Positions 5,627 through 46,942 of a stretch of 64,000 nt of DNA are shown here, one piece after another. Made by a program: the position numbers and the translations under genes. The stretch is taken from NCBI RefSeq assembly GCF_003352065.1, contig NZ_CP025803.1, positions 3,079,574-3,143,573 of the forward strand, written 5' to 3'. Within the stretch, counting starts at the first letter, position 1, and every line of letters begins with the position of its first letter. This stretch comes from Sulfitobacter sp. SK011. Its GTDB lineage: Bacteria; Pseudomonadota; Alphaproteobacteria; Rhodobacterales; Rhodobacteraceae. Under the pieces are notes generated by a model. The model had not been told where the DNA came from and did not search any database. It worked only from the letters and a program-made list of their open reading frames with translations.

Positions 5627-5670
5627 TGGAGCGGGCGGCGGGAATCGAACCCGCGTCATTAGCTTGGAAG
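5627..5670 (-). tRNA. 3' half of disrupted tRNA-Gly(UCC), island left junction
   Basis: Read on the minus strand this is anticodon loop CTTCCAA, stem GCTAA, a 4-nt variable region, a perfect T arm (GCGGG, TTCGATT, CCCGC), acceptor CGCCCGC, discriminator T and encoded CCA. Nothing upstream of the loop resembles a tRNA. The missing 5' half, with the complementary TTAGC anticodon stem, is at 46906-46942 on the same strand. Joined at the shared 7-bp loop they give a 74-nt tRNA with anticodon UCC. Confidence 0.93.
5664..5670. other. Left attachment core TTGGAAG
   Basis: Seven bases shared exactly with 46906-46912. In tRNA terms this is the whole anticodon loop, a common crossover site for tyrosine integrases. 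Confidence 0.85.
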
Positions 5671-5719
5671 ACTATGCTGCAAATCGTAAATAAATCAAAT
5701 AAAACATAGGCATAACGAA

Positions 5720-5732
5720 ACCCGTAGCGGGT
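5720..5732 (-). terminator. Possible terminator of the island-borne tRNA-Gly
   Basis: On the minus strand ACCCG-CTA-CGGGT is followed by TTTCGTT, 32 bp downstream of the CCA end of the intact tRNA-Gly. The stem is only 5 bp, so this is a weak call. Confidence 0.4.
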
Positions 5733-5763
5733 CTTTGTCGGTAAACTGTCGGAAATGATTTTT

Positions 5764-5838
5764 TGGAGCGGGCGGGGGGAATCGAACCCCCATCTTCAGT
5801 TTGGAAAACTGAGGTCTTAACCATTACACAACGCCCGC
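5764..5838 (-). tRNA. tRNA-Gly(UCC), complete, island-borne
   Basis: 75 nt including encoded CCA. Acceptor GCGGGCG/CGCCCGC is perfect, anticodon stem TCAGT/ACTGA is perfect, loop TTTCCAA gives anticodon UCC, and the T arm is GGGGG-TTCGATT-CCCCC. The 5' half is almost the same as the disrupted host gene at the island edges, but the anticodon stem and T stem differ, so it is a diverged gene and not a copy made on insertion. It reads GGA (and by wobble GGG) codons. As the host UCC gene is split, this gene may supply that function. Confidence 0.95.
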
Positions 5839-5849
5839 TTACTATTTGC

Positions 5850-5878
5850 CCAATATTTCATACAAGTTTTGGGGTCAA
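5850..5878 (-). promoter_or_regulatory. Sigma-70-type promoter of island-borne tRNA-Gly
   Basis: On the minus strand TTGACC (5873-5878) and TATTGG (5850-5855) are 17 bp apart, 11 bp before the tRNA 5' end. The same arrangement (TTGACC, 17 bp, TACTAG) precedes the broken host tRNA at 46956-46984. Confidence 0.65.
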
Positions 5879-6084
5879 GTAGTATGTGATCAGTCACATG
5901 AGACGAGGGTCTGTCTTAGAAGACGAACACTTGCTGCAAGGCACATTCGGCTCTAGTCTGGATCCAGCTGCAGAATGGCATTCCAATTTAATTCCCACCA
6001 CCCTTCAAGCAACCATTCAACCAATAGCTCTCCGTCCTACTTGCAATCCTCTAGGCGGGAAATCAACAACGCAACAGTGTTTGT

Positions 6085-6129
6085 CTGTTAATCAATTGGT
6101 CGTAGGTTCGATCCCTACCGCCGGAGCCA
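6085..6129 (+). tRNA. 3' fragment of tRNA-Asn(GUU), remnant attachment site
   Basis: The 45 bp begin exactly at the anticodon loop CTGTTAA and run through TCAAT stem, T arm (GTAGG-TTCGATC-CCTAC), acceptor CGCCGGA and GCCA. Upstream sequence does not pair with the anticodon stem, so no functional tRNA is made. It is a scar or attP-derived end of another element that used tRNA-Asn, and it uses the same position (anticodon loop) as the outer island does in tRNA-Gly. Confidence 0.85.
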
Positions 6130-6160
6130 AAATCTCTCTTAGTTAACAAGAGAGTAACAA

Positions 6161-6182
6161 GTCGCCCTCCGGGGCGGCTTTT
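6161..6182 (+). terminator. Terminator downstream of tRNA-Asn fragment
   Basis: GTCGCCC and GGGCGGC form a 7-bp stem with loop TCCG, followed by TTTT. It probably came along with the tRNA-Asn 3' end. Confidence 0.7.
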
Positions 6183-6667: not shown

Positions 6668-9367
6668 ATGAACGTCATTGAGATTGAGGAACAGATCGAC
6701 GCTATTGTTGCAAAAGATTTTAATCCTGACGAGTTCGTTTTTGACTTCGTGGAGGCCTTTGATGCCCCTAAGGCCACGGTCAAACAGCTTAGACAGGGGC
6801 AACAAAACGCATCTGACATCGGTGGCATCCTTTGGCGTCGCAACCTGCATTACATACAAGCCCTGAACGGCCTGGTCAGACAAGCCCTGGACAAGTTGCA
6901 AGCCAGCAAGGAAACAGCCAAGCAAAAGGTCCGCTACATCGTCAGCACCGACGGAAATGAGTTTGGTGCACGCGATCTCAAGACCGGTGAAACACTCAAC
7001 TGCCTAATCAGCGAACTAGGATTACATTTCGGCTTCTTTCTGCCGCTCGCCAATATCGAACGATACAAGATTGCCGATGAAAACCCTATAGACATCAAGG
7101 CGACTGGTCGCCTTGCCAAGTTATATGACGCCATTCTTATGGATAACCCTACCTGGAAAGGCGACGAGAAGAGGCACGCTCTCAATCATTTCATGACGCA
7201 GATCGTGTTTTGTCTTTTCGCTGAAGACACTGGCATCTTTGCAGAGAATTCCTTCAGTGAAACGATAGCCACATACTGCGAGACAGATAGCACCCAGGCA
7301 AAAACTGTTCTGACAAACGTCTTCACGGCCATGAGCCTGTCCGAAGACCACCGCGGCGACTGCCCCGCTTACGCCAAGAAATTCCCATTTGTTAATGGCG
7401 GCCTGTTCAAGGGCGCAGCTGACGTTCCGCGCCTGACGCGTGGCTCGGTGCGTTATCTCATTGACGCAGGTCAATTAGACTGGCGCGAGATCAATCCCGA
7501 CATCTTCGGATCAATGATCCAGTCAATCGTAAACGAAGACCAGCGTGGCGAGCTGGGCATGCACTACACGTCAGTGCCCAACATCCTCAAAGTATTGGAT
7601 CCATTGTTTTTAGATGACCTGCGCGAACAAGTTCTAGCGGGATGGGACAAAAAGAAATCTCTCCAAAATGTGCTGGATCGGCTCAGCAAGATACGCGTTT
7701 TCGACCCAGCGTGCGGATCCGGAAACTTCCTCGTGATTGCATACCGCGAGCTACGCAAAATCGAAATAAAGGTGATCAGTCGGCTAGCCGAAATCGACAA
7801 CTATTCTGCGCCGCTTTGGTCGCATGTCGAATTAACGAACTTCTACGGTATTGAATATGCCGACTTTGCTGCGGAAACAGCGCGTCTGTCGCTATGGATT
7901 GCTGAGTATCAGATGAACAGCCGCTATGAAGCAGCATTTGGACGCCGTGCGCCAGCATTGCCACTCAAGGCCACTGGCAGAATAGTCAACGGCAATGCAC
8001 TTCGGATAAATTGGGAAAGAGTGTGCCCACATCCGGACGATCAAACCATCGAGACCTATATTGTCGGTAACCCCCCGTATTTAGGTCGTCAATTGCAAAC
8101 TCCCGAGCAAAAAGAGGACAAAGCGATAGCGTTCGCTGGCACAGTGAAGAACTTTAAATCACTTGACTATGTTGCTAGTTGGTTCGTTCTAGGCAACAAA
8201 TATATTCTTAAATCTTGTGGCAAATCAGCATATTCCTTCGTGGCCACCAACTCGATAGCTCAAGGACAGCACGTGTCTGTCTTGTGGACCAAACTGCTTT
8301 CTGATCCGGTCGAGATAATCTATGCACATGAAGCATTCAATTGGCGCAACAACGCAAAACAGAACGCAGCAGTCATTGTTGTCATTGTTGCGGTTAGCAA
8401 AATTGGCAAAAATCATCAAAAGAAGATCTACACGAAGGATCAAATATTTTCGGTAAAAAATATCTCGCCTTATCTGACTTCCAGCGACAATACGATTGTC
8501 CTTCCAATTTCTAACTCGAGGTCTGATCGGCCCAAAATGAGCTTTGGAAATATGGCTCTAAACGGAGGTGCCCTCATCTTAAGCAGCTCAGAAGTAACTG
8601 AATTGGTCAGTAGAAATCCTGAAGCGAAGAGATATTTGCGAAAGCTGGTCGGGTCCGAAGAGTTCATCAGAAACACGGAACGCTTCTGCCTGTGGATCCG
8701 AGATTCCGAAGCAGACGACGCACTTCAAATTGAAGAAATTAAAGGAAGGGTAGAAGAGGTCAAGGCACTCCGTCTAGCTAGCTCAGACTCTGCGACGAGG
8801 AGATTTGCGGAGATGCCTTATCGTTTTCGTGAACAAAATGAATGCACAGACCTGTCAATCATTATCCCTCGGGTCTCCTCAGATAGACGCCAATATATTC
8901 CATGTGGAATACTCGATTCAAACTCGATAATTTCGGACTCCGCGTTTGGCATTTTTGATGGCGAGCTATGGATGTTGAGCGTCTTAAGCTCTTCACTTCA
9001 TTTGGCTTGGATCAAAGCAGTATGCGGAAAACTAAAGGGTGACTACCGCTATTCAAATACCCTTGGCTGGAATACGTTCCCGGTTCCACGATTGACTAGT
9101 ACAAACTACGAGACCTTAGCAAAGGTGGCCGAGAATATATTGTTGGCTAGAGATGCATACTTCGACAAAACAATTGCTGAGCTATATGAGCCTGAAAACA
9201 TGGAGAAGGAGTTTCCTGAACTCCAAAAAGCTCATCAAGAAAACGATGATGTACTAGAGACAATATACAATGGCACGCCGTTCAGAAATGATCCCGAGCG
9301 TCTCGAACATCTTTTCAAGCGATATGTTGAAATAGTTGACGCCCAAATGGAAGAAACATCATCATGA
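6668..9367 (+). CDS. MmeI-like class I SAM-dependent DNA N6-adenine methyltransferase
   Basis: The 899-residue protein has methyltransferase motif I FDPACGSGNFL (about residue 344) and motif IV GNPPYLG (about 467), the N6-adenine/gamma-class arrangement. A helical region (LPLANIERY..., FCLFAEDTGIF) precedes it and a target-recognition and C-terminal part follows, as in MmeI/type IIL and type ISP enzymes. I do not see a clear D-(E/Q)xK endonuclease motif in the first 150 residues, so it may only methylate. Its stop overlaps the helicase start (ATGA, 9364-9367), showing a coupled operon in which the helicase and GIY-YIG nuclease may provide restriction. Confidence 0.88.
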   Translation: MNVIEIEEQIDAIVAKDFNPDEFVFDFVEAFDAPKATVKQLRQGQQNASDIGGILWRRNLHYIQALNGLVRQALDKLQASKETAKQKVRYIVSTDGNEFGARDLKTGETLNCLISELGLHFGFFLPLANIERYKIADENPIDIKATGRLAKLYDAILMDNPTWKGDEKRHALNHFMTQIVFCLFAEDTGIFAENSFSETIATYCETDSTQAKTVLTNVFTAMSLSEDHRGDCPAYAKKFPFVNGGLFKGAADVPRLTRGSVRYLIDAGQLDWREINPDIFGSMIQSIVNEDQRGELGMHYTSVPNILKVLDPLFLDDLREQVLAGWDKKKSLQNVLDRLSKIRVFDPACGSGNFLVIAYRELRKIEIKVISRLAEIDNYSAPLWSHVELTNFYGIEYADFAAETARLSLWIAEYQMNSRYEAAFGRRAPALPLKATGRIVNGNALRINWERVCPHPDDQTIETYIVGNPPYLGRQLQTPEQKEDKAIAFAGTVKNFKSLDYVASWFVLGNKYILKSCGKSAYSFVATNSIAQGQHVSVLWTKLLSDPVEIIYAHEAFNWRNNAKQNAAVIVVIVAVSKIGKNHQKKIYTKDQIFSVKNISPYLTSSDNTIVLPISNSRSDRPKMSFGNMALNGGALILSSSEVTELVSRNPEAKRYLRKLVGSEEFIRNTERFCLWIRDSEADDALQIEEIKGRVEEVKALRLASSDSATRRFAEMPYRFREQNECTDLSIIIPRVSSDRRQYIPCGILDSNSIISDSAFGIFDGELWMLSVLSSSLHLAWIKAVCGKLKGDYRYSNTLGWNTFPVPRLTSTNYETLAKVAENILLARDAYFDKTIAELYEPENMEKEFPELQKAHQENDDVLETIYNGTPFRNDPERLEHLFKRYVEIVDAQMEETSS

Positions 9368-11433
9368 AAGACGTAATCCACGTTCAGTACGAACAAACAG
9401 GGAGTAGCCAGGTCGACAAGGGCATGGGAATGCGTGCAATGCAAGCCCGCGCCTATGAGAAACGCGATGAGCAATACATCCTTGTCAAAGCACCTCCTGC
9501 GTCGGGTAAATCTCGAGCACTAATGTTCCTTGGTTTACATAAGCTGCATAACCAAGGTGTGAAGAAAGTAATAGTAGCGGTACCCGAAAAGACCATCGGC
9601 AATTCCTTTCGCACCACCAAATTAAAAAAGCACGGTTTCTTCGCAGACTGGAACGTTAATCCTGATTGGAACCTGTGCTCTGATGAAGCGGTTTCGGATC
9701 AGGGCGCTGTGTTGCGCGGCAAGGTGCAGCGGCTAGGAGAATTTCTTAAGAATGATGAACAAATATTGGTGTGCACTCATGCCACGCTACGCTTCGCGTT
9801 TGATCAGTTCCCTGTCGAGAATTTTGACGACTGCCTGATCGCGGTGGACGAGTTTCACCATGTGTCAGCTTATGAAGAAAATCGACTTGGTGAGGTGGTG
9901 CGAGAACTAATCGCACGCGGAAAGACGCATATCATTGCTATGACCGGTTCCTACTTCAGGGGCGACACAGTACTCGTGATGCGCCCCGAAGATGAAGCGA
10001 AGTTCGTCAGCGTTTCATACACTTACTACGAGCAGCTGAACGGATACAAACACCTCAAATCGCTGGGTATTGGCTATCATTTCTATTCCGGTATTTACAC
10101 TAAGAGCATTGGCGAAGTGCTCGACACATCCAAAAAGACTATCATTCATATCCCCCACGTAGGCAGCTCTGCCTCAACCGGTGACAAGTACCGAGAAGTT
10201 CAGGACATCTTCGACGCCATCGGTGATTATCAGGGGGTAGACGAGAAGACCGGGTTACACCTAATTGAAAAGAGCGGGCGGCTCTTGCGTGTCGCAGATT
10301 TGGTTGAAGACAGCACGGACCTACGACAAAGAGTGCAGAAAACGCTTCGACACCTCGAAGATCGAGACGCGGTAGACATCATCATTGCCTTAGGCATGGC
10401 GAAAGAGGGTTTCGACTGGATTTGGTGTGAGCATGCACTGACCGTTGGTTATCGGTCATCTCTCACAGAGATCATTCAGATCATTGGTCGTGCCACCCGA
10501 GATGCCCCAGGGAAGACGCATGCCCAATTTACCAACTTGCTCCCCGAGCCTGAGGCCACACAGGGAACAGTTACAGAGGCGGTCAACGACTTACTCAAAG
10601 CAATCTCTGCATCCCTGTTGATGCAGCAGGTCCTCGCTCCAAAGTTTAAGTTTTTCACCAAGACGTCAAAAGACGAAGATGAGGACGATGGGAGACCCGA
10701 CTTTGAAGTTGATGACGAAACAGGTGAAGTTCGTATCGCCGTCAGGGGGTTAAAAGAGCCATCTTCGGATCGTGTCCGCCAGATAGTTGATGAGGATATT
10801 AATGAAATAATTCATGATATCTGCACCGACAATGACGTAGCATTGCATGCATCAACCAATCCAGACCTTGAGCCGGAAACGCTAAATCGAGTGCTTGTAC
10901 CCAAGGTGATCGAGCGTCGCTACGCCGATCTGGATGACGAACAGATTGAAGAGGTTCGTCAGCAGATTGTTGCACGGATGAATATCCTGGATGCTGCGCA
11001 ACGCCTTGATTTTGACGAGCCTATGCCTACCGACCCTGACGATGATCAAACTGGCGTCGAGAAAGATCCTAAGAAGAGCGGTGGTGAGGCAGGCTTGCTA
11101 AAGTTGGTACGTCAGTTCGTTAACGTACGCGACCTCGACATCGACCTAATTGACGAGATCAATGCCTTCCAATCGGCCTATGAAATTCTATCTAGAGACC
11201 TTGATGCGAAAACACTTGCGCAGGTTCAGACAGCCATCACAGGCAAGATGATCCAAGTAACGGAAGAAGAGGCTCTTCGTGCCTGGCCTCGCATCATGAA
11301 ATTCAAGGATGACAACAACCGCTTGCCTTCCGCACTTGCGGCCAATGAGATCGAAAAAAGGCTCGGAGAAATCTACGCTTGGCTAATGCGTAAAAAGCGA
11401 GAGATGGCTGCCAAAGCGCAAGGAGATCAGTAA
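9364..11433 (+). CDS. SF2 DEAD/DEAH-type helicase of restriction-like operon
   Basis: 689 residues. Walker A is the variant APPASGKSRA near residue 44, motif II is VDEFHH near 161, motif III is MTGS, and motif VI QIIGRATRDAPG is near 371, preceded by GMAKEGFDW. These place it with DNA translocases of the restriction-enzyme helicase type. The C-terminal 250 residues are acidic and helical without a known domain, and could bind the partners. It overlaps the methyltransferase by 4 nt and ends 2 nt before the nuclease gene, so the three products are probably made together. Confidence 0.85.
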   Translation: MKDVIHVQYEQTGSSQVDKGMGMRAMQARAYEKRDEQYILVKAPPASGKSRALMFLGLHKLHNQGVKKVIVAVPEKTIGNSFRTTKLKKHGFFADWNVNPDWNLCSDEAVSDQGAVLRGKVQRLGEFLKNDEQILVCTHATLRFAFDQFPVENFDDCLIAVDEFHHVSAYEENRLGEVVRELIARGKTHIIAMTGSYFRGDTVLVMRPEDEAKFVSVSYTYYEQLNGYKHLKSLGIGYHFYSGIYTKSIGEVLDTSKKTIIHIPHVGSSASTGDKYREVQDIFDAIGDYQGVDEKTGLHLIEKSGRLLRVADLVEDSTDLRQRVQKTLRHLEDRDAVDIIIALGMAKEGFDWIWCEHALTVGYRSSLTEIIQIIGRATRDAPGKTHAQFTNLLPEPEATQGTVTEAVNDLLKAISASLLMQQVLAPKFKFFTKTSKDEDEDDGRPDFEVDDETGEVRIAVRGLKEPSSDRVRQIVDEDINEIIHDICTDNDVALHASTNPDLEPETLNRVLVPKVIERRYADLDDEQIEEVRQQIVARMNILDAAQRLDFDEPMPTDPDDDQTGVEKDPKKSGGEAGLLKLVRQFVNVRDLDIDLIDEINAFQSAYEILSRDLDAKTLAQVQTAITGKMIQVTEEEALRAWPRIMKFKDDNNRLPSALAANEIEKRLGEIYAWLMRKKREMAAKAQGDQ

Positions 11434-11435
11434 TT

Positions 11436-12728
11436 ATGACTGACAAAATTCTCTCACTAGACGACATTTTCGCTGCGCTTCCTGATGCATCGCCAGCGGC
11501 TGCAATTCGATCGTCTGTTGATGCAAAAACCAAAGAGGCCTTTGGACAAATCAATGCCTTTGTTCAGAAATTCGGTCGCGAGCCGATGGACGATCATACT
11601 GTTGAGTTCGAAGAGCGTTCCCTCGCCAAGAAATTGAAAAGAATTCGAGCCATAGCCGGTATGTGGGAAACATTGAGAACGGAGGATGAGTTCGACCTTC
11701 TTAAAGACGCACGAAACCAAGATACAGAAGCACCGGAGGTTGATGGAAGCGAAAATGCCACATCACAGCATGAGGCGGAAGAACCATCGGGAACCAGTAG
11801 CGAGCCGATAATAGCATCCGACGACGAACTCGAAGGATATGATGCGCCGGACGACCTGGAAGAATTGATGACCGCGCTTACAGAGGCTGAGAACGATGAC
11901 GACAGCATCTTTAAGCTAAGGCACGTTCGTTCTTATGATCGACAGATGGCCAGTGCTGACTTCACGTCTCAACGCGAAAAATGTCCTAACTTCCACGAGT
12001 ACGAACCTCTCTTTGAGCAAGTGAACAAAGAAATTGCCAGCGGCATTCGTGAACCATTGCCGTTTCGAAAAGAACAAGAAATTTACCAAGGTCAATTTTT
12101 TATCTTAAACGGCTTGATGGTTTACATTGCTGAGGTTGGTGAAGCATTTGAGAAGAATGGCAAAAAGAATGCTCGACTTAAAACAATTTTTTCGAATGGC
12201 ACCCAAGGGAATAACCTGCTGAGATCACTTGCGACTGAGCTTTATAAGGACTCAAACGGTAGGAGGATCAGCGATCCCAAAACCGGTGGCCTGTTCAGCA
12301 ATGTAGCAGCCGAAAATGACATCGGGACAGGTACCGTCTATGTGCTGGAAAGCTTATCACTACAGCCTTCAGTGCTTCCCAACCGAAAAATCCTTCATAA
12401 GATTGGTGTAACGAAAGGACCTGTCGCAACACGGATCGCAAATGCTGAAAAGGAAGCGACCTACCTTCTCGCGCCAGTTAAAGTGGTTGCTGAGTTTGAA
12501 GTATTCAACATCAAAGCCAGAAACATCGAAAAGCTTTTGCATGCCTACTTCGACACAGCACGTGCAGAGATCACGATCAAAGACAGATTTGGGAAGCCAG
12601 TTCAATCCAGGGAATGGTTCTTTGCGCCCGTTAACGCAATTAAAGAAGCCGTTGATCGACTGATCGATGGAACGCTTGGTGAAACGTTTTATGACGCCAA
12701 GGCTGGTCAGATCAGACCTAGGCAGTGA
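11436..12728 (+). CDS. GIY-YIG (T5orf172-type) nuclease
   Basis: 430 residues. The C-terminal third carries a GIY-YIG fold: GTVYVLESLS near residue 298, HKIGVTKGPVATRIANAEKEA after it, and a late EKLLHAYF helix with the conserved glutamate, as in T5orf172/Mug113 nucleases. The N-terminal half is acidic (residues 85-170 rich in E and D) with no recognised domain. As third gene of the methyltransferase-helicase operon it is the best candidate for the cutting subunit. Self DNA would be spared by methylation. This is inferred from gene order, not shown. Confidence 0.82.
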   Translation: MTDKILSLDDIFAALPDASPAAAIRSSVDAKTKEAFGQINAFVQKFGREPMDDHTVEFEERSLAKKLKRIRAIAGMWETLRTEDEFDLLKDARNQDTEAPEVDGSENATSQHEAEEPSGTSSEPIIASDDELEGYDAPDDLEELMTALTEAENDDDSIFKLRHVRSYDRQMASADFTSQREKCPNFHEYEPLFEQVNKEIASGIREPLPFRKEQEIYQGQFFILNGLMVYIAEVGEAFEKNGKKNARLKTIFSNGTQGNNLLRSLATELYKDSNGRRISDPKTGGLFSNVAAENDIGTGTVYVLESLSLQPSVLPNRKILHKIGVTKGPVATRIANAEKEATYLLAPVKVVAEFEVFNIKARNIEKLLHAYFDTARAEITIKDRFGKPVQSREWFFAPVNAIKEAVDRLIDGTLGETFYDAKAGQIRPRQ

Positions 12729-12896
12729 TAATCGACCTTCCGTAAAGTTCTCAACAAATGAGCTCATAATCCAGGCTAAGCTCATGTGATAAAATACGTC
12801 TTCTTCGATACCAAAAAAACACAGGCACGGACACGACACGATCAATGCGCCCCCGCCGTACGGCACATGAGGAAATAAGAATAAGGGACTAAAAAG

Positions 12897-13655
12897 ATGC
12901 TGGTTTTCATTGATACGAACATCTTCCTGGACCTTTACCGCATGGGTAGTGGGCAGGGAGCATTGAGGCAGTTGGAACTGCTCAGTCAAGTTAAGGATCA
13001 CGTCATCACAACCTATCAAGTTGAGATGGAATATAAGAAGCACCGTCAACAAATGATTATTGATACGCATAATCAGTTAAGGGGGGTTTCGTCTGACCAT
13101 AAACAGTTCTCGCCACTTCTTCTAGATTCGCAGCCAGTGAAGATGATCAAAAGGAACATCAAGGCAATTGAGACTCAGCAAAAGAGGATCAAAGAGCGTA
13201 TGGATAGAATTCTTCTCAATCCTGCCAACAACGACCCAATCTATCAGCATCTGCAGAGAATGTTTAAAGCCAAGTCCACGCTGAACTTAAATAGAGACAA
13301 AGAAGTTCGACACACGATCAGGCGACAAGCGAAAAAACGGTTCTTTCTTGGCTATCCACCGCGTAAGCCAGATGACAATTCCATTGGAGATGCGGTGAAT
13401 TGGGAGTGGATTGTTAAGTGCGCCATTCAAGAAAAAACTGATGTGACCATTGTTAGCAGAGACAACGACTTTGGCATTTCCCATAATAAAAAGCGCTACA
13501 TCAATGATTGGCTCAAACAAGAGTTCAAAGAACGAGTGGGGCGCAAAGACGTCATTCTTACAGATAAGATGATGGACGCACTGGCGCAGCTTAAGGTCAG
13601 AGTATCTTCGAAGGATCGCGAGGAAGAGAACGCTCTGGTGGAATCAGGCGACTAA
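12897..13655 (+). CDS. PIN-domain protein (DUF4935-like)
   Basis: The 252-residue protein begins MLVFIDTNIFLDLYRMG, the first acidic motif of PIN ribonucleases, and has later acidic positions in KPDDNSIGDAVNW and TIVSRDNDFG. The spacing matches the longer DUF4935 PIN type, which contains a basic helical insert (residues 40-140 here). It probably cuts RNA using Mg2+. It starts 168 bp after the nuclease gene on the same strand and may be a toxin-like or abortive arm of that cluster. No small antitoxin gene is evident beside it. Confidence 0.8.
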   Translation: MLVFIDTNIFLDLYRMGSGQGALRQLELLSQVKDHVITTYQVEMEYKKHRQQMIIDTHNQLRGVSSDHKQFSPLLLDSQPVKMIKRNIKAIETQQKRIKERMDRILLNPANNDPIYQHLQRMFKAKSTLNLNRDKEVRHTIRRQAKKRFFLGYPPRKPDDNSIGDAVNWEWIVKCAIQEKTDVTIVSRDNDFGISHNKKRYINDWLKQEFKERVGRKDVILTDKMMDALAQLKVRVSSKDREEENALVESGD

Positions 13656-15147: not shown

Positions 15148-18100
15148 TTGAGCTTCGATTCAGACCCATCTACTACAACCCCTGACATATTGGGGCGGTG
15201 CGTTTCGATCGACCTAGAAGTCGATCCGGCGCAAGCGAAGATATTTGCGCTTGCGGCGGTGACGCACGATCCCGCTTTGGCAGCTCTCACTGTGAAGTCC
15301 GACCTCAAAGCAGGTTTGGATAAACTGGATGAATTCTGCCGAGGGTTTGATCATGTGATTGGTCACAACATCCTTGCGCATGACCTTCCGCATCTCGCCG
15401 CTGCATCACCACTGTTTGTGGCCTTAGCAGATGCCCCAATCGACACTCTTTGGCTAAACCCACTGGCGTTTCCACGAAACCCTTACCACCACCTTGTCAA
15501 ACACTACCAAGATGGCCGCCTTCAATCTGGTCGCGTCAATGACCCCACTTTCGATGCGCGCCTCGTCTTCGAAGTTCTGGAAAACCAAATCACTGCCTTT
15601 TCAGAGCTCAAGGATCGCTCACCGGACGCGTTGTTGGCTTATCACTATCTTTGTTGTCGTTCTCCCCAAAGCGGCGGGTTCGACAGGCTCTTCGAAGGGG
15701 TCCGCAACAGCCAGAAGCCTGATCGCGACGAGGCACACACCGCAATCCGCAGAATGCTCAAAGACGCAGCCTGTTCTGCGATGTTGGGCAAAACCCTCGA
15801 GCAACTTGACAATACTCGTCTGTCCTGGCCCATGGCCTATGCGCTGTCCTGGATTTCAGTCGCTGGAGGTGACTCCGTTATGCCGCCGTGGGTGCGCGCT
15901 CAATTCAAAGACGCCGCAAGGATTGTGCGGGACCTAAGAGACACCAATTGCAAGAGCCCTTGGTGCAACTATTGCAGAACGCACAATGATCCAAAGCGCG
16001 CCTTGTCCCGTTGGTTTGGATTTGAGAGCTTTCGCCCAGAGCCAGCGGATGAATTCGGCAGACCTCTCCAAGAGCGGATCGTGGAAAGCGCGATGGAGCG
16101 CGAAAGCGTGCTTGGCATCCTGCCGACAGGGACTGGCAAATCTATTTGCTATCAGATCCCTGCTCTTTCGCGGTTCGACAAAACTGGCACGCTTACAGTC
16201 GTTATTTCACCACTCGTCGCGTTAATGGCGGACCAAGTACAGGGAATGGCGCGTGCCGGAATATCATCGGCTGTGACTATCAATGGATTGTTGTCACTCC
16301 CTGAGCGCCACGATGCACTGGACAAAGTCCGCCTTGGTGATGCTGCTATCTTATTGATTTCCCCTGAGCAGCTACGCAGCACGTCGGTACGATCAGTGCT
16401 TGCCCAGCGCGAAGTTGGCATGTGGGTCTTGGATGAAGCGCACTGTGTCTCAAAATGGGGTCACGACTTCAGACCGGACTATCGCTATGTGAGCCGGTTC
16501 ATTAAGGAAAGTTCTGGCGACGAAGTCGCACCTATTCTTTGCCTTACCGCAACCGCGAAGCCCGATGTCGTACAAGACATATGTGGGCATTTCAGTGAGC
16601 GCCTAGGGCTCGATCTAACGCTCCTCGACGGTGGTGCCTCTCGTACCAACCTCAGCTTTAAGGTTCTTCCCACGCAGCGGACCACTAAAATGGCTGACAT
16701 TCTGGATGCACTAGAGGCCGACCTTCCAACCAATGGAGTATCCGGAGCTGTCGTCTATTGCGCCACACGTAGCGCCACTGAACGCGTTGCTGAATTTCTC
16801 AAACAACAAGGGCTTGCAGCCGACCGCTATCACGCTGGCCTCACGGTCGATGAGAAACGTGACATCCAAGAGGCTTTCCGCGTCGGTGAACTCCGTATCA
16901 TTGCAGCGACCAACGCGTTTGGCATGGGGATCGATAAGCCCGACATCCGGCTGGTCATCCACGGTGATGTACCAGGCTCGCTTGAGAACTACTTGCAGGA
17001 AGCAGGCCGCGCCGGGCGTGATAGAGATCCCGCCCAGTGCGTCTTGCTGTTCAATACCGACGATGTGGACCGGCAGTTTAGCTTGAGCGCGCGCTCTAGG
17101 TTGGCGCGTCATGAAATCGGTGCGATCCTAAAGTCCATCCGGCGGTTGGATAGCAGAACGCGCAAGAACGGTGAGGTTGTCGCGACAGCTGGAGAGATCG
17201 TCAAAGAAGAGATGGATCATGACTTCCAGCGTGACAGCACGACCGACGACACACGCGTCAAAACTGCTGTAGCCTGGCTCGAAGAAGCAAAGCTCCTCAG
17301 ACGCGAAGAAAATCGCGTCCAGGTCTTCCCTGCCTCATTGCTTGTACGTGACACTGCAAAAGTAAGAGAAATTCTAGAGCGCGTGGAAATCTCCGAGACC
17401 CGGAAACGTCAACTATTGAGCGTCGTCCAGCACATAATCAACGCTTCTCCTGAAGAAGGCGTTTCGACTGATGCGCTGTGTGGAGCCAGTGGGCTCACTG
17501 CACCAGCGCTCCGAAAGGCACTTACCGACCTCGAAGCCCTGGGTATCGCCAACGACGACACCAACATCACAATCTTTGTTCACGTTGGCGTAGAAAACGC
17601 ATCGCGCGCGCGTCTTGAAGCTGCAGCGCGGCTAGAAGCCGATCTCATTGCCCTTTTGCGCGAAGAGGCTCCTGACGCAGACAGCGGCGAGCCAACGCCA
17701 TTCAATCTTTCTGCCACAAGCCAAATGCTGAGGGAAAGAGGTCATATTTCCGTCCGTCCTGATATTGTTGAAGGCCTCTTACGAGGCATGGCTCAAGATG
17801 GTCGTGATATGGAAGGCGGGCGCGGGAACCTTCATTTGCGCAAGGCATCTCGCGGTAGCCTATTTGTTAGACTGCAGCGCTCTTGGTCTATCATTGAACA
17901 AACAGCCGAACTGCGCAGACTTGGGGCAGAACGACTACTCAATTACCTTGCTGACCGCGTGCCAAAGGGAACGCGCGGTAAGGACATTCCGGTCGAAACA
18001 ACATTGGGCGGCCTCCTTTCCGCGATCAATGGTGATGCTGTTCTTAGAGGTTCGGTCAACGATCCCAACAAACTGATGGATCGCGCACTGCTTTGGCTTC

Positions 18101-28122: not shown

Positions 28123-30411
28123 GTGCCGGATTATAGTTTTGAGAATTTGAACGACAAAGAATTTGAGGTGCTCGTAAATGATCTCATATCTGTCAAAGAG
28201 GCTATCGAAGTCGACCGGTACAAGTCCGGAAAAGACGGTGGAATAGATGGGCGATTTTTCACAGTTAACAAGGGCGAGACAATTATCCAAAGCAAGCATT
28301 GGATCAAGTCGGGTATTGCCGCTCTGATTGCAAGGTTAGAGAAAGATGAGGTAGACAAAGTCCGTTCTCTTAATCCCAAGAGATATATCCTCGCAACATC
28401 ACTGCCCTTGTCAAAGGTAAACAAGGATAAGATCAAACAGATTTTTGACCCATATATTTTGTCACACAATGACATCATAGGTCAGGATAATCTCAACTAT
28501 CTGCTTGGAAAGTTCGGTGAAATTGAGCGAAAGCACTACAAATTATGGTTATCTAGCAGCAACGTACTGAGTTCCATGCTTAACGCCGCATTGACTGGGC
28601 GAAGTGAGGCAAAACGAGACGCCATCATCAATGCTACAAAAATGTATGTGATAACAGGCAACCACGGTAAATCTCTAGAAAAGCTTGAAACGCTACATTC
28701 GGTGGTAATCACCGGTGAAGCAGGCATTGGAAAGACCTCTTTGGCGGATCAATTGGCGCACCACTACATTGCGGAGGATTACGAGCTTTGTGTAATCGAG
28801 AACGATGTCTCCGAAGCTGAAGATCGATTTGAAAAAGGCAAGAAGCAGGTTTTTTATTTTGATGATTTCCTTGGCCGCAACTATCTTATGGCGATAGAAG
28901 GGCATAAGGACAGCCACGTTCTGAATTTTCTAGACAGGGTTAGTAGAGATAAGACGAAAAGGTTCATACTGACGTCGAGATCAACTGTATTGAGTCAAGG
29001 AAAGCAACACAGCGATCTACTGTACATCAAGAAGATCGACAAAAAGGAATACGAAATTACGATCCAATCCCTATCAGTTCTTGATAGGGCGAAAATTTTG
29101 TATAACCACATTTGGCACAGTGGACTGTCGGAAAAGCACATTGCGGAACTCTATGTTGACCGACGATATCTTAAGATAGCAAATCATCGGAATTTTAACC
29201 CCCGACTGATCTCGTTCATCACCGATCCTGATAGAGTTAGCAGTGTGAAACCGAAAAAGTACTGGGATTACATTATTGATAGATTAGATAACCCAAAGGA
29301 TATCTGGGCTGACGTATACGATAATCAGATTGACGAGCTGACTAGGCAGACAGTTTGCCTCCTTGTCTTTAATGGTTCCAGTATTGCCGAAGAGAACCTA
29401 CGTGCTCCACTATACAAAATCGCGATTTCTGAGGGCTTGATAAGCCCTTCGAACGCTTCTAGCCGTTACACAAATATGTTAAAGGCAGCCGTTGGTACAG
29501 TTCTCCAAAGAAATATTGGTGGTATTGACGGTGTAGCAAAATTGGATTTATTCAATCCTTCCGTCGCAGATTTCATATTGGGTCGATATTTGGATGACGC
29601 TCTTGCTATGCAGTTGTACTTCTTGAGTTTGAATACTCTAGCGTCATTGCGTAACTTGAAGAGCTTAAACCAAAATGATGGCTTGAAAAATGGAATTTAT
29701 TTTGAGGTATTAAAGAAACTTTCATGCGAGAAGATCGACGAGGGTTTTTATAGTGAGAACCCTGAGTATGTCTTACGGCTTACCCAGATGATTATTGAAA
29801 ACCCAAGCGCATCTTCAAAATGCGATGTGCAGAGCACTGTTGAGTTTCTGTGCCCTCTAATTGAAAAGAGCGTACCCAGCGGATTTGTAGATGAAGTTTC
29901 AAGTTTATTGGAGTTAGGTTTATCAAAGAAACTGGATCGTTTTCAGGAAGTTGCTACGAAATTCATTTCGAAAACTGCGTTGGAAAATCCGTCAATAGAT
30001 GAATTGCTTAGAATAGAAAAACTAAGAAAAAATGTCCCGAACTTGCACCAAGATATTGATGCTAGTTTACTTGAGGCCATACAACGAGAGGCTGTTTCAT
30101 ACTGGAAAGATGAGGCCCGTCAGGAACTTCTTGACAATGGGGTATTGGAGGATTTCTTCTTGCCGGAGCATGAGGATGAAGCATATCATGTTGCGGCTGA
30201 TTTCGTCGAAGAGGCTTTAGCGGCTTTTGGTATATCATCAGAAATTGCTACAGAAGTTACTGACTTCGTAGACGTTGCAGACATTTTGGAAGACAATCTC
30301 CAAGCTAGAAGTGAAGCGGAGTTTCATTATAGTCAAAAGGACTCGGGCCTCGGTGGTGCTTTTGGTGGCGATACAGATGCCCTAGTGGATGACCTTTTTG
30401 AACGCGATTAG
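28123..30411 (+). CDS. Mrr-like restriction endonuclease fused to nSTAND3-type NTPase
   Basis: 762 residues from a GTG start. Residues 5-110 form a Mrr-like nuclease (FEVLVNDLIS, GKDGGIDGRF about 36-45, IIQSKHW with QxK at about 56-60). A STAND NTPase follows with Walker A ITGEAGIGKTS at about 195 and Walker B-like VFYFDDFLG at about 244, then sensor SRS and a long helical C-terminal part (420-760) that probably recognises a trigger. This nuclease-STAND-sensor layout is that of Avs-like antiviral ATPases. The gene is visibly richer in A+T than the backbone and sits between the two 708-bp repeats, pointing to recent transfer. Confidence 0.85.
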   Translation: MPDYSFENLNDKEFEVLVNDLISVKEAIEVDRYKSGKDGGIDGRFFTVNKGETIIQSKHWIKSGIAALIARLEKDEVDKVRSLNPKRYILATSLPLSKVNKDKIKQIFDPYILSHNDIIGQDNLNYLLGKFGEIERKHYKLWLSSSNVLSSMLNAALTGRSEAKRDAIINATKMYVITGNHGKSLEKLETLHSVVITGEAGIGKTSLADQLAHHYIAEDYELCVIENDVSEAEDRFEKGKKQVFYFDDFLGRNYLMAIEGHKDSHVLNFLDRVSRDKTKRFILTSRSTVLSQGKQHSDLLYIKKIDKKEYEITIQSLSVLDRAKILYNHIWHSGLSEKHIAELYVDRRYLKIANHRNFNPRLISFITDPDRVSSVKPKKYWDYIIDRLDNPKDIWADVYDNQIDELTRQTVCLLVFNGSSIAEENLRAPLYKIAISEGLISPSNASSRYTNMLKAAVGTVLQRNIGGIDGVAKLDLFNPSVADFILGRYLDDALAMQLYFLSLNTLASLRNLKSLNQNDGLKNGIYFEVLKKLSCEKIDEGFYSENPEYVLRLTQMIIENPSASSKCDVQSTVEFLCPLIEKSVPSGFVDEVSSLLELGLSKKLDRFQEVATKFISKTALENPSIDELLRIEKLRKNVPNLHQDIDASLLEAIQREAVSYWKDEARQELLDNGVLEDFFLPEHEDEAYHVAADFVEEALAAFGISSEIATEVTDFVDVADILEDNLQARSEAEFHYSQKDSGLGGAFGGDTDALVDDLFERD

Positions 30412-42247: not shown

Positions 42248-42287
42248 GGTCGCTGGCACGATGAACTGAAATGCTGCGCAACCGCTC

Positions 42288-42439: not shown

Positions 42440-42718
42440 CTACTGCTCCCTGCCCCGTCTTGCCAAGAACTCTGCGAGCGCCCGCGGCAATCCTCCATCG
42501 TATTCAATTATGGCGGCCCGCTCTTCAAACTCATATTCCTGATCCGTAATCAATCTGCCTGCAGACGCTTTAGGCTGCGGCAACTGCGGCATTTGCGGCA
42601 AAGCTCGTCCCAAGAGTCCTTGCGCAGACTCACGGCAGCCTTCGGGGCAGACAATCGGGAAGATCTGTTCAGCGTTAGCAACGCACGTCTGAATAAGGCC
42701 TATACCGATTGAGGTCAT
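42440..42718 (-). CDS. Small hypothetical protein coupled to the DUF3987 gene
   Basis: 92 residues. Its ATG overlaps the stop of the DUF3987 gene (ATGA, 42715-42718), so it is probably translated with it. A middle PQMPQLPQPKA linker and a C-terminal ALAEFLARRGRE helix are the only features. No family recognised. Confidence 0.6.
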   Translation of the reverse strand: MTSIGIGLIQTCVANAEQIFPIVCPEGCRESAQGLLGRALPQMPQLPQPKASAGRLITDQEYEFEERAAIIEYDGGLPRALAEFLARRGREQ

Positions 42719-44235
42719 TCTACCGCGCCCCGGCGCACAACACGCCAGTATGTTTTACTGTTGGACCCATTGATAACCTGCCGCCCAGGCTCACGAGCCA
42801 GCCAGCCGTGCTCAGTGAGCTTTTTGATGCAGAAGTCCAATGTGTTCCCATCACGCAGATGACCGGGGCCATTTTTCATCATGGTTCGCTTGTCGATGAA
42901 CTCTTCGGCCCATTTGTTCACAACCCACTGCCTTAACGCTTCGGCCGCGCAGAGTTCCTCGTTTGGGCGGCCCGTATCCGAGACACGCTGCATCTCTGAG
43001 AGATACCACTCCATCATGATTATTCCGTTTGACATCATCCCTTCGGTAATCTCAGTCGCAAGTTCGTCCGCATAAAGCGTCTGCACACCAGCGATCCTCA
43101 CTGCCATTTCAGGGGCCTTTGCCGCAAATCCGGTCATGTATTCAAACGCCTCACCCCTGTTTGAGGCGTGTTCCACGCAATTATAAAACTCTTCAAGTTT
43201 TGCACGCGCCTGATCGGATAGTTTTAAAATCCTGGGTTCAAGATCCGCCCTGGTCTCCGGATGGATTGGCAATGCAAGCTTAAGAAGCGCTTTAATGCGC
43301 TCATCAAATGCGACCAAATTCGCCTTCGCTTCGCTTTCCTCAGCAATACGTGATGGATCTTTAGTGATTTGACGTGATCCAATCTTACTGTCGGGCCAGG
43401 CGATCAGTATGCGAGAGAGGAGCCCTTGGTCCTTCATCATCGGGTCTCCAATCACAGTCTGCGCCATGCCTGGCTGAAGCATGAGATGCAACGACACCCG
43501 CTTCCCGTAAAGCACACTGGGTTCAGACGATGCACGGCTCTTGCTGATTGAGGAACCATCCCAAAGCTTGGAAAACCCGGCCGCTGTTTTGAGCGCGTTT
43601 TCTTTTTTCATACTGTGACCACCGAAGAACTGGCCACCTTCATCGGTCATCAAAGCGACAGACGGCGTTCCCGTCTCCAAACGCCGGTGGAGCCCTTCGA
43701 TTGTGACATCGCTGATCAATATTGTGGGAACAAGCGGTGGTTCAGGAGCCAAATCACACTTTGAGTCTCCGGGATCTCCTTCAATAACCTCAAAGTCTTT
43801 ATTAGATTTGCGTCTCTGACCTTTCTGGAACTCCAGCAACTCGGCTTCAAACACGCGTTTTGCAAGGCGGTACTGACGTTCCCGCTCTTGGTCCACGTCT
43901 TTAATTGCAGCTGTCGCCAACGCGTCACACGCCGATTTGCGCTCCCCAGACTTAGCAATTGTGAGCGCAAACAAGCTTATCGGCACATGCCCGCGAAGGG
44001 TTTCCACATCCGCAAGCCCCTGCGTAACGGTACTGACGACGGTCAATACACTTTGCATCGCGATCGCAGCCGGTGCTTGCGTCAACGTTGAGATACTCAT
44101 GATGGGGTCAGCCAAAGGACCAAGCGCCGCCCATGGAACCGGCTCAGCTTCGCGCAGTTCGCCAAACAGAGGAACTGGTTCGGATTGGGGGGTAGAGGCA
44201 CAGCTCTCCCCTTTGCTAAACTTACTAGTCAGCAT
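42715..44235 (-). CDS. DUF3987 (YfjI-like) protein
   Basis: 506 residues. AALGPLADPIMSISTLTQAPAAIAMQSVLTVVSTVTQ, HVPISLFALTIAKSGERKSA (P-loop-like GERKS) and MTDEGGQFFGGHSM fit DUF3987, the helicase/primase-associated ATPase-like family of integrative elements and prophages. It probably supports element replication or maintenance. GGAGAAAG precedes the ATG. Downstream of the AlpA-like regulator and upstream of the small protein in one transcription direction. Confidence 0.87.
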   Translation of the reverse strand: MLTSKFSKGESCASTPQSEPVPLFGELREAEPVPWAALGPLADPIMSISTLTQAPAAIAMQSVLTVVSTVTQGLADVETLRGHVPISLFALTIAKSGERKSACDALATAAIKDVDQERERQYRLAKRVFEAELLEFQKGQRRKSNKDFEVIEGDPGDSKCDLAPEPPLVPTILISDVTIEGLHRRLETGTPSVALMTDEGGQFFGGHSMKKENALKTAAGFSKLWDGSSISKSRASSEPSVLYGKRVSLHLMLQPGMAQTVIGDPMMKDQGLLSRILIAWPDSKIGSRQITKDPSRIAEESEAKANLVAFDERIKALLKLALPIHPETRADLEPRILKLSDQARAKLEEFYNCVEHASNRGEAFEYMTGFAAKAPEMAVRIAGVQTLYADELATEITEGMMSNGIIMMEWYLSEMQRVSDTGRPNEELCAAEALRQWVVNKWAEEFIDKRTMMKNGPGHLRDGNTLDFCIKKLTEHGWLAREPGRQVINGSNSKTYWRVVRRGAVE

Positions 44236-44383
44236 TACTTTCTCCAGTGATTTTTCAGATGTGCCAGTGTTCTGGCAAAGCTATTTTGAAAGGCCGCTAG
44301 CTAAGGTGAGGATGACCGATTACAGCGCCTTTCAGACTGGGCCAGCGATAGCGAACTGCTGTGGTCCAAATACAGGTTGCCGA

Positions 44384-44587
44384 TTAAACGACTTTCACAG
44401 CATCGACGGCGCAAAACTCGATCCAAGCTTCGATATCAGCGACGCGATACCTCACCGAACGCCCCACGCGGACTAAGCGGGGACCTTCTCCGCGGCCAAT
44501 AGCCAGTTCGAGATAGCGTTTCGAGATGCCAAAGCGCTCTTCCACTTCGGACCTGGTAAGCAACCGGTCAATATTTTGGTGTTTCAT
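44384..44587 (-). CDS. AlpA-family helix-turn-helix regulator/excisionase
   Basis: 67 residues: LLTRSEVEERFGISKRYLELAIGRGEGPRLVRVGRSVRYRVADIEAW is the AlpA/excisionase DNA-binding pattern (residues 9-56). Such proteins switch on integrase and excision in P4-like islands. It lies between the DUF3987 gene and the integrase block in the standard order of these elements. Confidence 0.88.
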   Translation of the reverse strand: MKHQNIDRLLTRSEVEERFGISKRYLELAIGRGEGPRLVRVGRSVRYRVADIEAWIEFCAVDAVKVV

Positions 44588-44706
44588 CAGCAGTCTCCGT
44601 TTTACGTTTTGCTAAGGAGAAACTTGCAAAATTTCGTGTTCAATAAAACGGGTGAACCTGATTAATACTTAGGGGGTTTGATTTATCTTATTGATTTTTA
44701 TGTATA

Positions 44707-45699
44707 TTAATAATTTCTGCGGCCGCTCTTCTTCATATCGGGGATGTTTGCGTCTTTCCAAACCATCTTGGCAGCGTTCTTGCTTAGCCCAAAATTTTTC
44801 ACCATTTCCTGGAGAAACCAATCCTTCTTTTGTATTGATTCGCGGTCACTTCGGCTCGCGTAACATTCCTCTAGCCAACGCAATGCATCTCTGGATGCTT
44901 TGCGGGCTCCTTTATCGAGCGGCCCGCCCGCTGCAGCAAACCATGTCTTTGGGAGATCTGCAGCGAAAACGAAACTGTAGCGGTCATTCAAAATATATTG
45001 ATAGGGCTCTCTTTGCCATCGGGCTGGTGGCGTGATCCCATGGTCCGGACAGAATACTAATATCCGCCCCTCACGCAGACATTTTTGAGTAAAGGCATTC
45101 TGGGAGTGCTTCAACCTCTCGAGTTCCTCACCAAATCTCACCCATTCTGGTCCGATCATGCGATAATGGTAAGGCAAACCTGGTTGGGTAGGGCCGTGCG
45201 CGGGTAGCAGGCCAAGTTCTCTTCTGTCTTCGTTTGAATAGCGTTCGCGGGCACATTTAGATGGCGATGTGTTTTTTAGATTCCGCAATATTGCTTCTAG
45301 TTGAGCAAAGATGTTCACTGTGCGCCTGGATTTACAAAGCAGCACATTCCAGACATGCGGTACAAGGTCTGTATCGAACCAGCGTATCTCGCATTCCTCA
45401 ACCAAAGAATTGAGTCGACCACCATCGAGTAACTTGGATTGGGTTTTCTCTAGCAGCTTTGGTTCGGTGACTGATGGACCAATCAGATCAACTTGATGCA
45501 AGAGATCGCTGAGGCCCTCGATTAAACTAAAAGGTGGAAATTCTTGTACCGGATCCAATTCGACAGCGCATTCGGATATCAGTCTGAGGGCCGTCTGATC
45601 AGACAAGGAAATGCGCATACCTTTGTGGACGGGTTGATCCTCTACATGCCCGTGATCTAAGGCTATAACTGAAACTTGAGTACTTGGCTTATCTACCAT
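44707..45699 (-). CDS. Hypothetical island protein adjoining the integrase
   Basis: 330 residues. It overlaps the integrase stop by 7 bp, so it is coupled to it. There is a CPDHGITPPARW block and a basic C-terminal tail with a helix-turn-helix-like stretch (VKNFGLSKNAAKMVWKDANI). No family recognised. It could help recombination or regulate the element. Confidence 0.6.
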   Translation of the reverse strand: MVDKPSTQVSVIALDHGHVEDQPVHKGMRISLSDQTALRLISECAVELDPVQEFPPFSLIEGLSDLLHQVDLIGPSVTEPKLLEKTQSKLLDGGRLNSLVEECEIRWFDTDLVPHVWNVLLCKSRRTVNIFAQLEAILRNLKNTSPSKCARERYSNEDRRELGLLPAHGPTQPGLPYHYRMIGPEWVRFGEELERLKHSQNAFTQKCLREGRILVFCPDHGITPPARWQREPYQYILNDRYSFVFAADLPKTWFAAAGGPLDKGARKASRDALRWLEECYASRSDRESIQKKDWFLQEMVKNFGLSKNAAKMVWKDANIPDMKKSGRRNY

Positions 45700-46775
45700 T
45701 GCGCACCTGTCCTCTTGACCAACTCATCGCATCCCATTTGCATAGCTGGGCGAAGCGCGTCCAAAGATGGACGTACATACCTTCTGCCCGTAATCGAAAG
45801 TGGGGTGTGGTTGAGAAGCCGCCCTACTATCTCTTCCAGCACACCAGCTTCCATCGCCACAGTTGCGAATGTCCTGCGATGCATATGCGGGTTGTACTTT
45901 AGCCTTTCAGGCTTTGTTATATGTCCCATCACCGACTTTGGAGACGGAAACACCCATTTTCGGCCGAGTGGGCGCAGCGGGGCCAAAATCTCATGGTGCA
46001 ATTGGAAGATCGGCAAGTCAAAACTCCGGCCGTTCTTTGTCATCGGAAGATGGATGCGATCTTCCTGAATTTGCTGCCATTGCAGCGTAAGCGCCTCAGT
46101 TTTCCTGAGACCTGTGAATAGGAGAAGCTCATAGAACACGCGATGTATTGGGTTGTCCAAGCCATCGATTGTGGCCCGCCAATCCTTTAGGTCATTGATG
46201 ATCCGACCGTCTGGGTTATCCTCGAACCATTCTATTGCTATCGCCGGGCATTCCCCCAGATCGCACGTCCGACGGGCATGGTTGTAGATTGCACGAAAGC
46301 TCCGAAGCACATGATTGGCAGCGGATGGCGTTTTAGCCATTTCCTGATGGCGACGGACAACCATTGCTTTGCTGATCTCGTCAAGTGGCAGTCGCAACCA
46401 GTCTTTGAGATGGAGTTCTATTTGCTGACGTGTTCCGCTCTTATGGGCATCAGATCGAAGCTTCGGGCGGGCTAAATATACTTCCATCGCAGCCACAAGC
46501 GTCGGCGCTCCAATCTGGGCCACCTTCCCTGCCCCCCTCCCCATCTCCAGCGCAAACCCAAGGGCCGTCTGTCGTGCAGCACCCGCCGAGATGGTGGGAA
46601 ATCGGCCGAGCAGAATGCGCTTGGTCTGACCGCCAACGTCTTTCTGGAAATACCAGGTTTTGGAGCGCTTCCCGACGAAGAGCACCAGACCTCTGATTTC
46701 GGCATCCCAATACTTGTCCGTACCGGCTTTCGCGTGTGGTAGCTTCTTGGCAAACGTCTCTGTGAGCTTTGGCAT
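45693..46775 (-). CDS. Tyrosine recombinase (P4-type integrase) of the tRNA-Gly island
   Basis: About 360 residues from the ATG at 46775 (MPKLTETFAKKLPHAKAGTD), with an N-terminal DUF4102-like arm-binding part (ILLGRFPTISAGAARQTAL) and a catalytic domain with R in FTGLRKTEALTLQW (about 223), HxxR in HMHRRTF (about 297), H in LLNHTPLS and Y in RRYV (about 330). All five expected positions are present. It lies next to the right attachment core, within 130 bp, and probably cut and joined the tRNA anticodon loop. Confidence 0.93.
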   Translation of the reverse strand: MPKLTETFAKKLPHAKAGTDKYWDAEIRGLVLFVGKRSKTWYFQKDVGGQTKRILLGRFPTISAGAARQTALGFALEMGRGAGKVAQIGAPTLVAAMEVYLARPKLRSDAHKSGTRQQIELHLKDWLRLPLDEISKAMVVRRHQEMAKTPSAANHVLRSFRAIYNHARRTCDLGECPAIAIEWFEDNPDGRIINDLKDWRATIDGLDNPIHRVFYELLLFTGLRKTEALTLQWQQIQEDRIHLPMTKNGRSFDLPIFQLHHEILAPLRPLGRKWVFPSPKSVMGHITKPERLKYNPHMHRRTFATVAMEAGVLEEIVGRLLNHTPLSITGRRYVRPSLDALRPAMQMGCDELVKRTGAQW

Positions 46776-46905
46776 TCTTTGTCGGCCTTTTGTAGGTAAC
46801 GGTATGCAAATCAGTGCTACACCATGCAACTCTACGTAAGATAAAAGTCAACAAAAATAAAGACTAAGATACTATATGATACTGTGAGAAATTCAGAAGC
46901 TTTGT

Positions 46906-46912
46906 TTGGAAG
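46906..46912. other. Right attachment core TTGGAAG
   Basis: Identical to 5664-5670. To its left the sequence does not restore the 3' half of the tRNA. Confidence 0.85.
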
Positions 46913-46942
46913 GCTAAGGTCTTACCACTACACAACGCCCGC
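46906..46942 (-). tRNA. 5' half of disrupted tRNA-Gly(UCC), island right junction
   Basis: On the minus strand: acceptor GCGGGCG, D arm, stem TTAGC and loop CTTCCAA, then unrelated island sequence (ACAAAGC...). It pairs with the 3' half at 5627-5670. A transcript from the native promoter would now be a dead half-tRNA joined to island RNA. Confidence 0.93.

What the first reader, a model, noticed from the sequence alone, without database searches (positions are those of the whole stretch)
5627..46942. Island splits an essential-type tRNA-Gly(UCC) at the anticodon loop and carries its own intact replacement
The tRNA halves (5627-5670 and 46906-46942) share only the 7-bp loop TTGGAAG and fit together with a perfect TTAGC/GCTAA stem over 41 kb. 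Integrases in tRNA genes normally restore the gene at the integrase-side junction from a 3' copy in attP. Here no restoration is seen at either junction. Instead a whole, diverged tRNA-Gly(UCC) with its own promoter lies 94 bp inside the left end. If no other UCC glycine tRNA exists in the genome, the island makes itself indispensable: loss without repair of the host gene would stop reading of GGA. Excision by the integrase would rebuild the host gene, so only partial deletions would be harmful.
Basis: partly seen in the sequence, partly recalled or inferred. Interest (0 to 1): 0.88.

Follow-up and report, generated by a model that had tools for sequence, protein, structure and literature searches.

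The report
Islands that bring a replacement tRNA
A 41-kb mobile island cuts the bacterium's only known gene for one glycine transfer RNA in two and carries its own whole copy; related islands in other marine bacteria do the same, so an essential gene may be handed on from island to island.

Summary
A tRNA-Gly(UCC) gene is split at the anticodon loop (5627-5670, 46906-46942) and rejoins to a clean 74-nt tRNA. An intact gene (5764-5838) lies 93 bp inside the left end and is the only intact Gly-UCC gene found in the genome. This is a rule: of 45 distinct integrase relatives (at least 60% identity, N-terminal part present), 44 sit beside a tRNA-Gly 5' half and 0 beside an intact tRNA. At the other end a whole tRNA-Gly(UCC) stands 137-138 bp, loop to loop, from the displaced 3' half in the window and in 18 of 27 further genomes, chosen as carriers, with arm-type repeats between. 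Sister integrases (52-53% identity) do the same with tRNA-Gly(CCC) in 3 of 4 genomes examined. The closest known case is tRNA-dependent lysogeny of actinobacteriophages (PMC10865867). What seems new: an apparently non-phage defence island in Rhodobacterales, the tRNA built into attP at fixed spacing, clade-wide use, and sequence evidence that island-borne tRNAs become the next island's target. The window's split gene may itself be an earlier import. Dependence on the island tRNA is inferred, not shown.

The parts
5627..5670 (-). displaced 3' half of the split tRNA-Gly(UCC); core 5664-5670
5671..5763 (.). P' arm of the attachment site, 93 bp, with arm-type repeats next to the tRNA
   Evidence: 93 bp in 15 of 16 arms measured, 94 in one
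5764..5838 (-). intact island-borne tRNA-Gly(UCC), the only intact UCC gene found in the genome
5853..5878 (-). likely promoter of the island tRNA (TTGAC begins 40 nt upstream; inner end approximate)
   Evidence: TTGAC 39-47 nt upstream in 16 of 16 left ends compared
6668..9367 (+). MmeI-like type IIG restriction-modification enzyme (cargo)
9364..13655 (+). DEAD-helicase, T5orf172 and PIN-domain proteins (cargo)
15148..20673 (+). 1841-aa DEAD plus UvrD helicase protein with DpdF- and GajB-like parts (cargo)
28123..30411 (+). nSTAND3 protein with Mrr-like N-terminus; PADLOC candidate PDC-S73 (cargo)
42715..44235 (-). DUF3987 protein, DNA-helicase-like in PHROGs
45693..46775 (-). tyrosine integrase (ORF listed to 46829; the ATG at 46775 begins a stretch shared with relatives)
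46776..46905 (.). P arm of the attachment site with arm-type repeats near the integrase start
46906..46942 (-). 5' half of the split tRNA-Gly(UCC), not restored; core 46906-46912

Best explanation
An integrative genomic island whose tyrosine integrase recombines a 7-bp core with the anticodon loop of tRNA-Gly(UCC). Its attachment site carries no 3' half of the gene, so integration breaks it. Instead a complete tRNA-Gly(UCC) gene with its own promoter is built in just beyond the 93-bp P' arm and takes over reading of GGA. Precise excision rebuilds the split gene; other losses of the left end should be lethal or costly. Inferred: expression of the island gene, dependence on it, and the circular attP form. 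Also inferred, with sequence support: an island-borne tRNA can be the target of the next island, so takeovers stack up.
For: 44 of 45 distinct integrase loci lie beside a tRNA-Gly 5' half, 0 of 45 beside an intact tRNA (up to 400 nt upstream). In the genus 5 of 5 integrase carriers have intact gene plus displaced 3' half (four 137 bp apart, G027 about 1.4 kb), against 3 of 53 others (G049 has both halves on contig fragments and could not be judged). Spacing is 137-138 bp in 18 of 27 further genomes (17, G002). The arm is 93 bp in 15 of 16 measured; in those 15 the mean pairwise identity is 0.73 over its first 30 nt and 0.40 over nt 31-85. Right 5' half and left 3' half form 5 of 5 stem pairs in 16 of 17 islands (G-U counted); in the 6 where the test can tell the displaced half from the intact gene (window, G027, G031, G420, G434, G445) it always favours the displaced half. 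One tRNA variant (acceptor GCGGGTG/CACCCGC) with a similar promoter sits in G002, G027 and G035, whose displaced 3' halves differ. Expectation met in a sister clade: tRNA-Gly(CCC) split and a whole copy carried in 3 of 4 genomes.
Against: No expression, excision or essentiality data; no attP circle seen; no relative in viral contigs and none of 60% identity or more in plasmids. 4 of 21 genomes with the integrase at 69% identity or more (G154, G240, G296, G413) have an intact tRNA without arm and half nearby, unexplained. In 11 of 17 islands the right 5' half pairs equally well with the intact gene, and in G126 better. In 6 of 17 the rebuilt gene equals the island gene, so carriage is not evident from those. 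In 9 of the 17 the two ends lie on different contigs and their pairing is assumed. The window's island tRNA is 97% identical to genes in 16 same-genus genomes, 15 of them without the pair. Upstream neighbours of the tRNA vary even among pair-free genomes.
Confidence: 0.88

Rival explanations
1. The intact tRNA is the old host gene; arm and 3' half are leftovers of an earlier, ordinary integration, and the island carries no tRNA.
For: 97% identity of the window's intact gene to genes in 16 same-genus genomes; intact and rebuilt genes identical in 6 of 17 islands; in G126 the right 5' half fits the intact gene only.
Against: In the six islands where the stem test discriminates, the integrase-side 5' half pairs with the displaced 3' half. 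The upstream genes shared by 10 pair-free genomes are absent beside the intact tRNA of island carriers. Arm plus half track the integrase (5 of 5 against 3 of 53).
Confidence: 0.07
2. Two unrelated accidents: an island that lost its gene-restoring segment, rescued by a tRNA copy that happened to lie nearby.
For: Close phage relatives can differ in this trait (PMC10865867, section 10 read).
Against: 137-138 bp spacing in the window and 18 of 27 further genomes; 0 of 45 restored.
Confidence: 0.02
3. The architecture is as described, but the window's island is fixed in place and no longer moves.
For: No phage structural or transfer gene among the ORFs scanned; pairs without a recognised integrase exist (G010, G020, G035).
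Against: Integrase frame, core and both arms are in place, and relatives occur in many genera.
Confidence: 0.25

Closest known systems
tRNA-dependent lysogeny of actinobacteriophages (PMC10865867; abstract, sections 6, 10 and 11 and further passages read)
   Same: Tyrosine integrase; a core of 8-17 bp that does not restore the target tRNA; putative arm-type sites; a complete cognate tRNA on the element, shown there to be required.
   Different: There temperate phages, with tRNA-Lys, Ile2 or Leu as targets; Fionnbharth's tRNA overlaps gene 37 and Gaia's lies downstream of int; restoring and non-restoring relatives are mixed. Here a cargo island in Rhodobacterales, tRNA-Gly, the tRNA directly beyond a 93-94-bp arm, no restored junction among 45 loci, and signs that carried tRNAs are targets in turn.
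Sinorhizobium meliloti prophages that disrupt tRNA-Leu(UAG) (PMC11476347; passages read)
   Same: Two alphaproteobacterial prophages break a tRNA gene and carry a functionally similar one.
   Different: Prophages; the paper states no evidence that carried tRNA genes serve as new integration sites.
Gene-restoring tRNA islands (Islander, PMC4383910; passages read)
   Same: Tyrosine integrase, anticodon-loop site, tRNA fragment at an island end.
   Different: There attP holds a fragment that restores the gene; here none does.

Membership tests
tRNA-dependent lysogeny / integration | Short core; target tRNA not reconstructed at a junction | tested here: met
   window junctions read; 0 of 45 integrase loci with an intact tRNA upstream
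[quoted passage not shown]
tRNA-dependent lysogeny / integration | Disrupted host tRNA has no other copy | tested here: met
   with the caveat that the tRNA scan is incomplete
tRNA-dependent lysogeny / integration | Element tRNA required for survival after integration | not testable with these tools
   needs an experiment
tRNA-dependent lysogeny / integration | Element is a temperate phage | tested here: inconclusive
   no structural gene among 19 island proteins (Pfam) and 10 (PHROGs); not every ORF was scanned; no relative of the integrase in viral contigs
gene-restoring tRNA island | attP fragment restores the target gene at one junction | tested here: not met

The most novel reading that the evidence does not exclude
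In Rhodobacterales the single tRNA-Gly(UCC) gene is a relay baton: each incoming island breaks the resident copy, often one left by an earlier island, and installs its own, so an essential tRNA is replaced again and again by horizontal transfer and the chromosome keeps a stack of broken 5' halves. A sister clade does the same to tRNA-Gly(CCC).
Probability: 0.6. Interest if true: 0.75.

Novelty: new variant of a known kind. Interest (0 to 1): 0.63.

Why it matters
It extends tRNA-dependent integration, shown in phages of Actinobacteria, to cargo islands of a major marine bacterial group and makes it a clade-wide strategy. It offers a concrete route by which a single-copy essential RNA gene is replaced by horizontal transfer, and a reason why islands with defence genes may resist partial deletion. 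It also warns island finders that look for one restored gene plus one fragment: here there are three pieces.

Tried and rejected
Rejected: ordinary restoring integration; a second UCC gene; the intact tRNA as a host gene outside the island. The first pattern search had the wrong gap and missed even the known gene; one search replaced it. One search missed the half beside G413's integrase for want of tRNA variants; two searches found it. I first took an SDR gene upstream of several intact tRNAs for native context; one search found it in only 6 of 58 genomes, so it is accessory. One search's check of the rebuilt genes used a shortened 5' end; one search repeats it with exact ends, same result (16 of 17 accepted). 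One search scored at most 4 candidates per genome, so its 22 of 394 is a lower bound. Viral contigs gave no relative; plasmids none at 60% identity or more. Williams 2002 on tRNA sublocations was not held; what I say of sublocations is recalled or from PMC4383910. Structure prediction and fold search were not used.
Full report
What is there. The window is C1:3079574-3143573 of a single-contig 4.19-Mb genome; the nearest named integrase relatives are Rhodobacterales such as Shimia, Litoreibacter and Roseovarius (the order name is recalled). A tRNA-Gly(UCC) gene lies in two pieces 41 kb apart sharing only TTGGAAG, the anticodon loop. Joined in a script they make a clean 74-nt tRNA. The integrase-side junction runs from the 5' half straight into island DNA. 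At the other end the order is ABC transporter, displaced 3' half, 93 bp, whole tRNA-Gly(UCC). The RF00005 scan found 37 tRNAs; 36 were typed and hold one Gly-GCC and one Gly-CCC; the other is the island gene. A targeted pattern found only the island gene and the displaced half. The 37 lack tRNA-Tyr, Ile-GAU and Ala-UGC, so the list is incomplete. GGA makes up 63 of 443 glycine codons in 12 flank ORFs; that only a UCC anticodon reads GGA here is recalled knowledge.

It is a rule. The integrase was found at E <= 1e-60 in 5 of 58 same-genus genomes (6 copies) and 22 of 394 family genomes (at most 4 candidates scored per genome); the window's genome and G008 are in both sets. The named collection gave 26 loci. 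One search compared 55 loci: 2 were exact duplicates over a 300-nt piece, 5 were below 60% identity and 3 lacked the N-terminal part. Of the remaining 45, 44 lie beside a tRNA-Gly 5' half within 400 nt and none beside a tRNA that ARAGORN accepts; the miss is L139.

The left end is as regular. In one search, 17 of 27 genomes show intact gene and 3' half 137 bp apart (138 in G010); G002 is an eighteenth (its half has a changed loop); G027 has them about 1.4 kb apart. The 27 were picked as carriers of the integrase or of the arrangement, so this is no population frequency. Of the 21 genomes with the integrase at 69% identity or more, 16 have the close pair, G027 the wide one, and G154, G240, G296 and G413 neither. 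In the genus all 5 integrase carriers have intact gene plus half, against 3 of 53 others (G010, G020, G035); G049 shows both halves on contig fragments and could not be judged. The arm was measured in 16 genomes: 93 bp in 15, 94 in one; its first 30 nt next to the tRNA are conserved (0.73 mean pairwise identity), nt 31-85 are not (0.40). Similar repeats stand before the integrase. I read these as arm-type integrase sites, by analogy.

The tRNA travels with the island. Among 17 islands (8 with both ends on one contig, 9 with ends on two contigs whose pairing is assumed) the right 5' half pairs 5 of 5 with the left 3' half in 16, G-U counted. It pairs equally well with the intact gene in 10 of these 16; in the six that discriminate (window, G027, G031, G420, G434, G445) the displaced half always wins; in G126 the intact gene does. 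G002, G027 and G035 carry one tRNA variant with a similar 48-51-nt stretch upstream, though their displaced 3' halves differ; no other intact copy of it was seen in the loci fetched. Upstream of the tRNA, 10 pair-free genomes share two genes absent from this position in the island carriers examined; other pair-free genomes have other neighbours, so 'native' is an inference.

Serial takeover. (a) In G126 the right 5' half equals its own island tRNA (30 of 30) and does not pair with the left 3' half (2 of 5); a second integrase beside another 5' half lies on contig C9. (b) In G002 two integrases with broken 5' halves follow each other, pieces of a third lie beside the upstream gene shared by pair-free relatives, and the stretch from the displaced 3' half to that gene is about 164 kb. 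The sequence before one broken half resembles that before the window's intact tRNA (63 nt at 78%, 115 nt at 74%). (c) The variant of G002, G027 and G035 occurs as a broken half beside an integrase in Loktanella sp. D2R18 (L160), though the upstream sequence differs. (d) In the window's own genome a 5' half at C1:2470892-2470934 has 1.2 kb upstream 79% and 74% identical to that of the intact tRNAs of G008 and G031, including an SDR gene found in 6 of 58 genomes. Each left end keeps only one 3' half; I infer that direct repeats 137 bp apart delete others. This section is inference from sequence.

The window's split gene may be an import: it is identical to intact genes of G093, G197 and G296 from other genera, and the shared upstream genes are not in the window.

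A sister clade. Integrases of 52-53% identity (L133-L135) lie beside a broken tRNA whose loop reads CCC. I then looked for a whole tRNA-Gly(CCC) with a displaced 3' half. In G212 and G416 they are 149 and 119 bp apart with arm-like repeats between; in G285 1.2 kb apart; G067 (49%) has an intact gene and, beside the integrase, a 3' half instead. Whether these genomes hold other Gly-CCC genes was not settled.

Would excision rescue the cell? With exact ends ARAGORN accepts the rejoined gene in 16 of 17 islands, the window among them. Blemishes appear in the rejoined genes of G002 and G027 (loop), G420 (T-stem 4 of 5) and G445 (acceptor 6 of 7 and D-loop). Of the intact genes only G126 falls short in the two stems counted (T-stem 4 of 5), leaving aside G394, which was padded with N.

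Comparison. tRNA-dependent lysogeny (PMC10865867) is the same logic with experimental proof in mycobacteriophages; its discussion expects wider use. Two S. meliloti prophages are a further case (PMC11476347, passages), recalled by the same group in PMC12429752 (passages). My ten literature searches showed no account of it in Rhodobacterales islands in their listings; one search listed 12 of 105 papers, and the library holds open-licence papers only.

Cargo. A type IIG enzyme, helicase proteins and an nSTAND3 protein suggest a defence island. No phage structural or transfer gene appeared among the ORFs scanned; how the island moves between cells is unknown.

Noticed in passing
window 6085-6129 (+): A 3' fragment of tRNA-Asn, from the anticodon loop to CCA, lies about 250 bp inside the left end of the tRNA-Gly island. 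The same fragment stands at C1:2470266, about 44.6 kb from the intact tRNA-Asn at C1:2425590, as at the end of another island.
   Followed up: partly
L089 (G000:C1:2464000-2478000), 6893-6935 (-): A second broken tRNA-Gly(UCC) 5' half in the same genome, about 600 bp from that tRNA-Asn fragment, with a distant integrase relative (24% identity) nearby.
   Followed up: partly
L133-L136 and L233-L241: Sister integrases split tRNA-Gly(CCC); three islands carry a whole tRNA-Gly(CCC); G067 has the integrase beside the 3' half instead.
   Followed up: partly
L096 (G002:C1:2028000-2036000), 4379-4414 (+): A tRNA-Gly 5' half away from the main locus; the sequence after it resembles that after the half at C1:2470892 of the window's genome, perhaps a further element type.
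   Followed up: no
window 54436-56453 (-): TfuA-like and YcaO genes side by side in the right flank, suggesting a peptide-modification locus.
   Followed up: no
window 44707-45699 (-): A 330-aa protein next to the integrase with no match in Pfam, PHROGs or NCBIfam at E 0.001.
   Followed up: no
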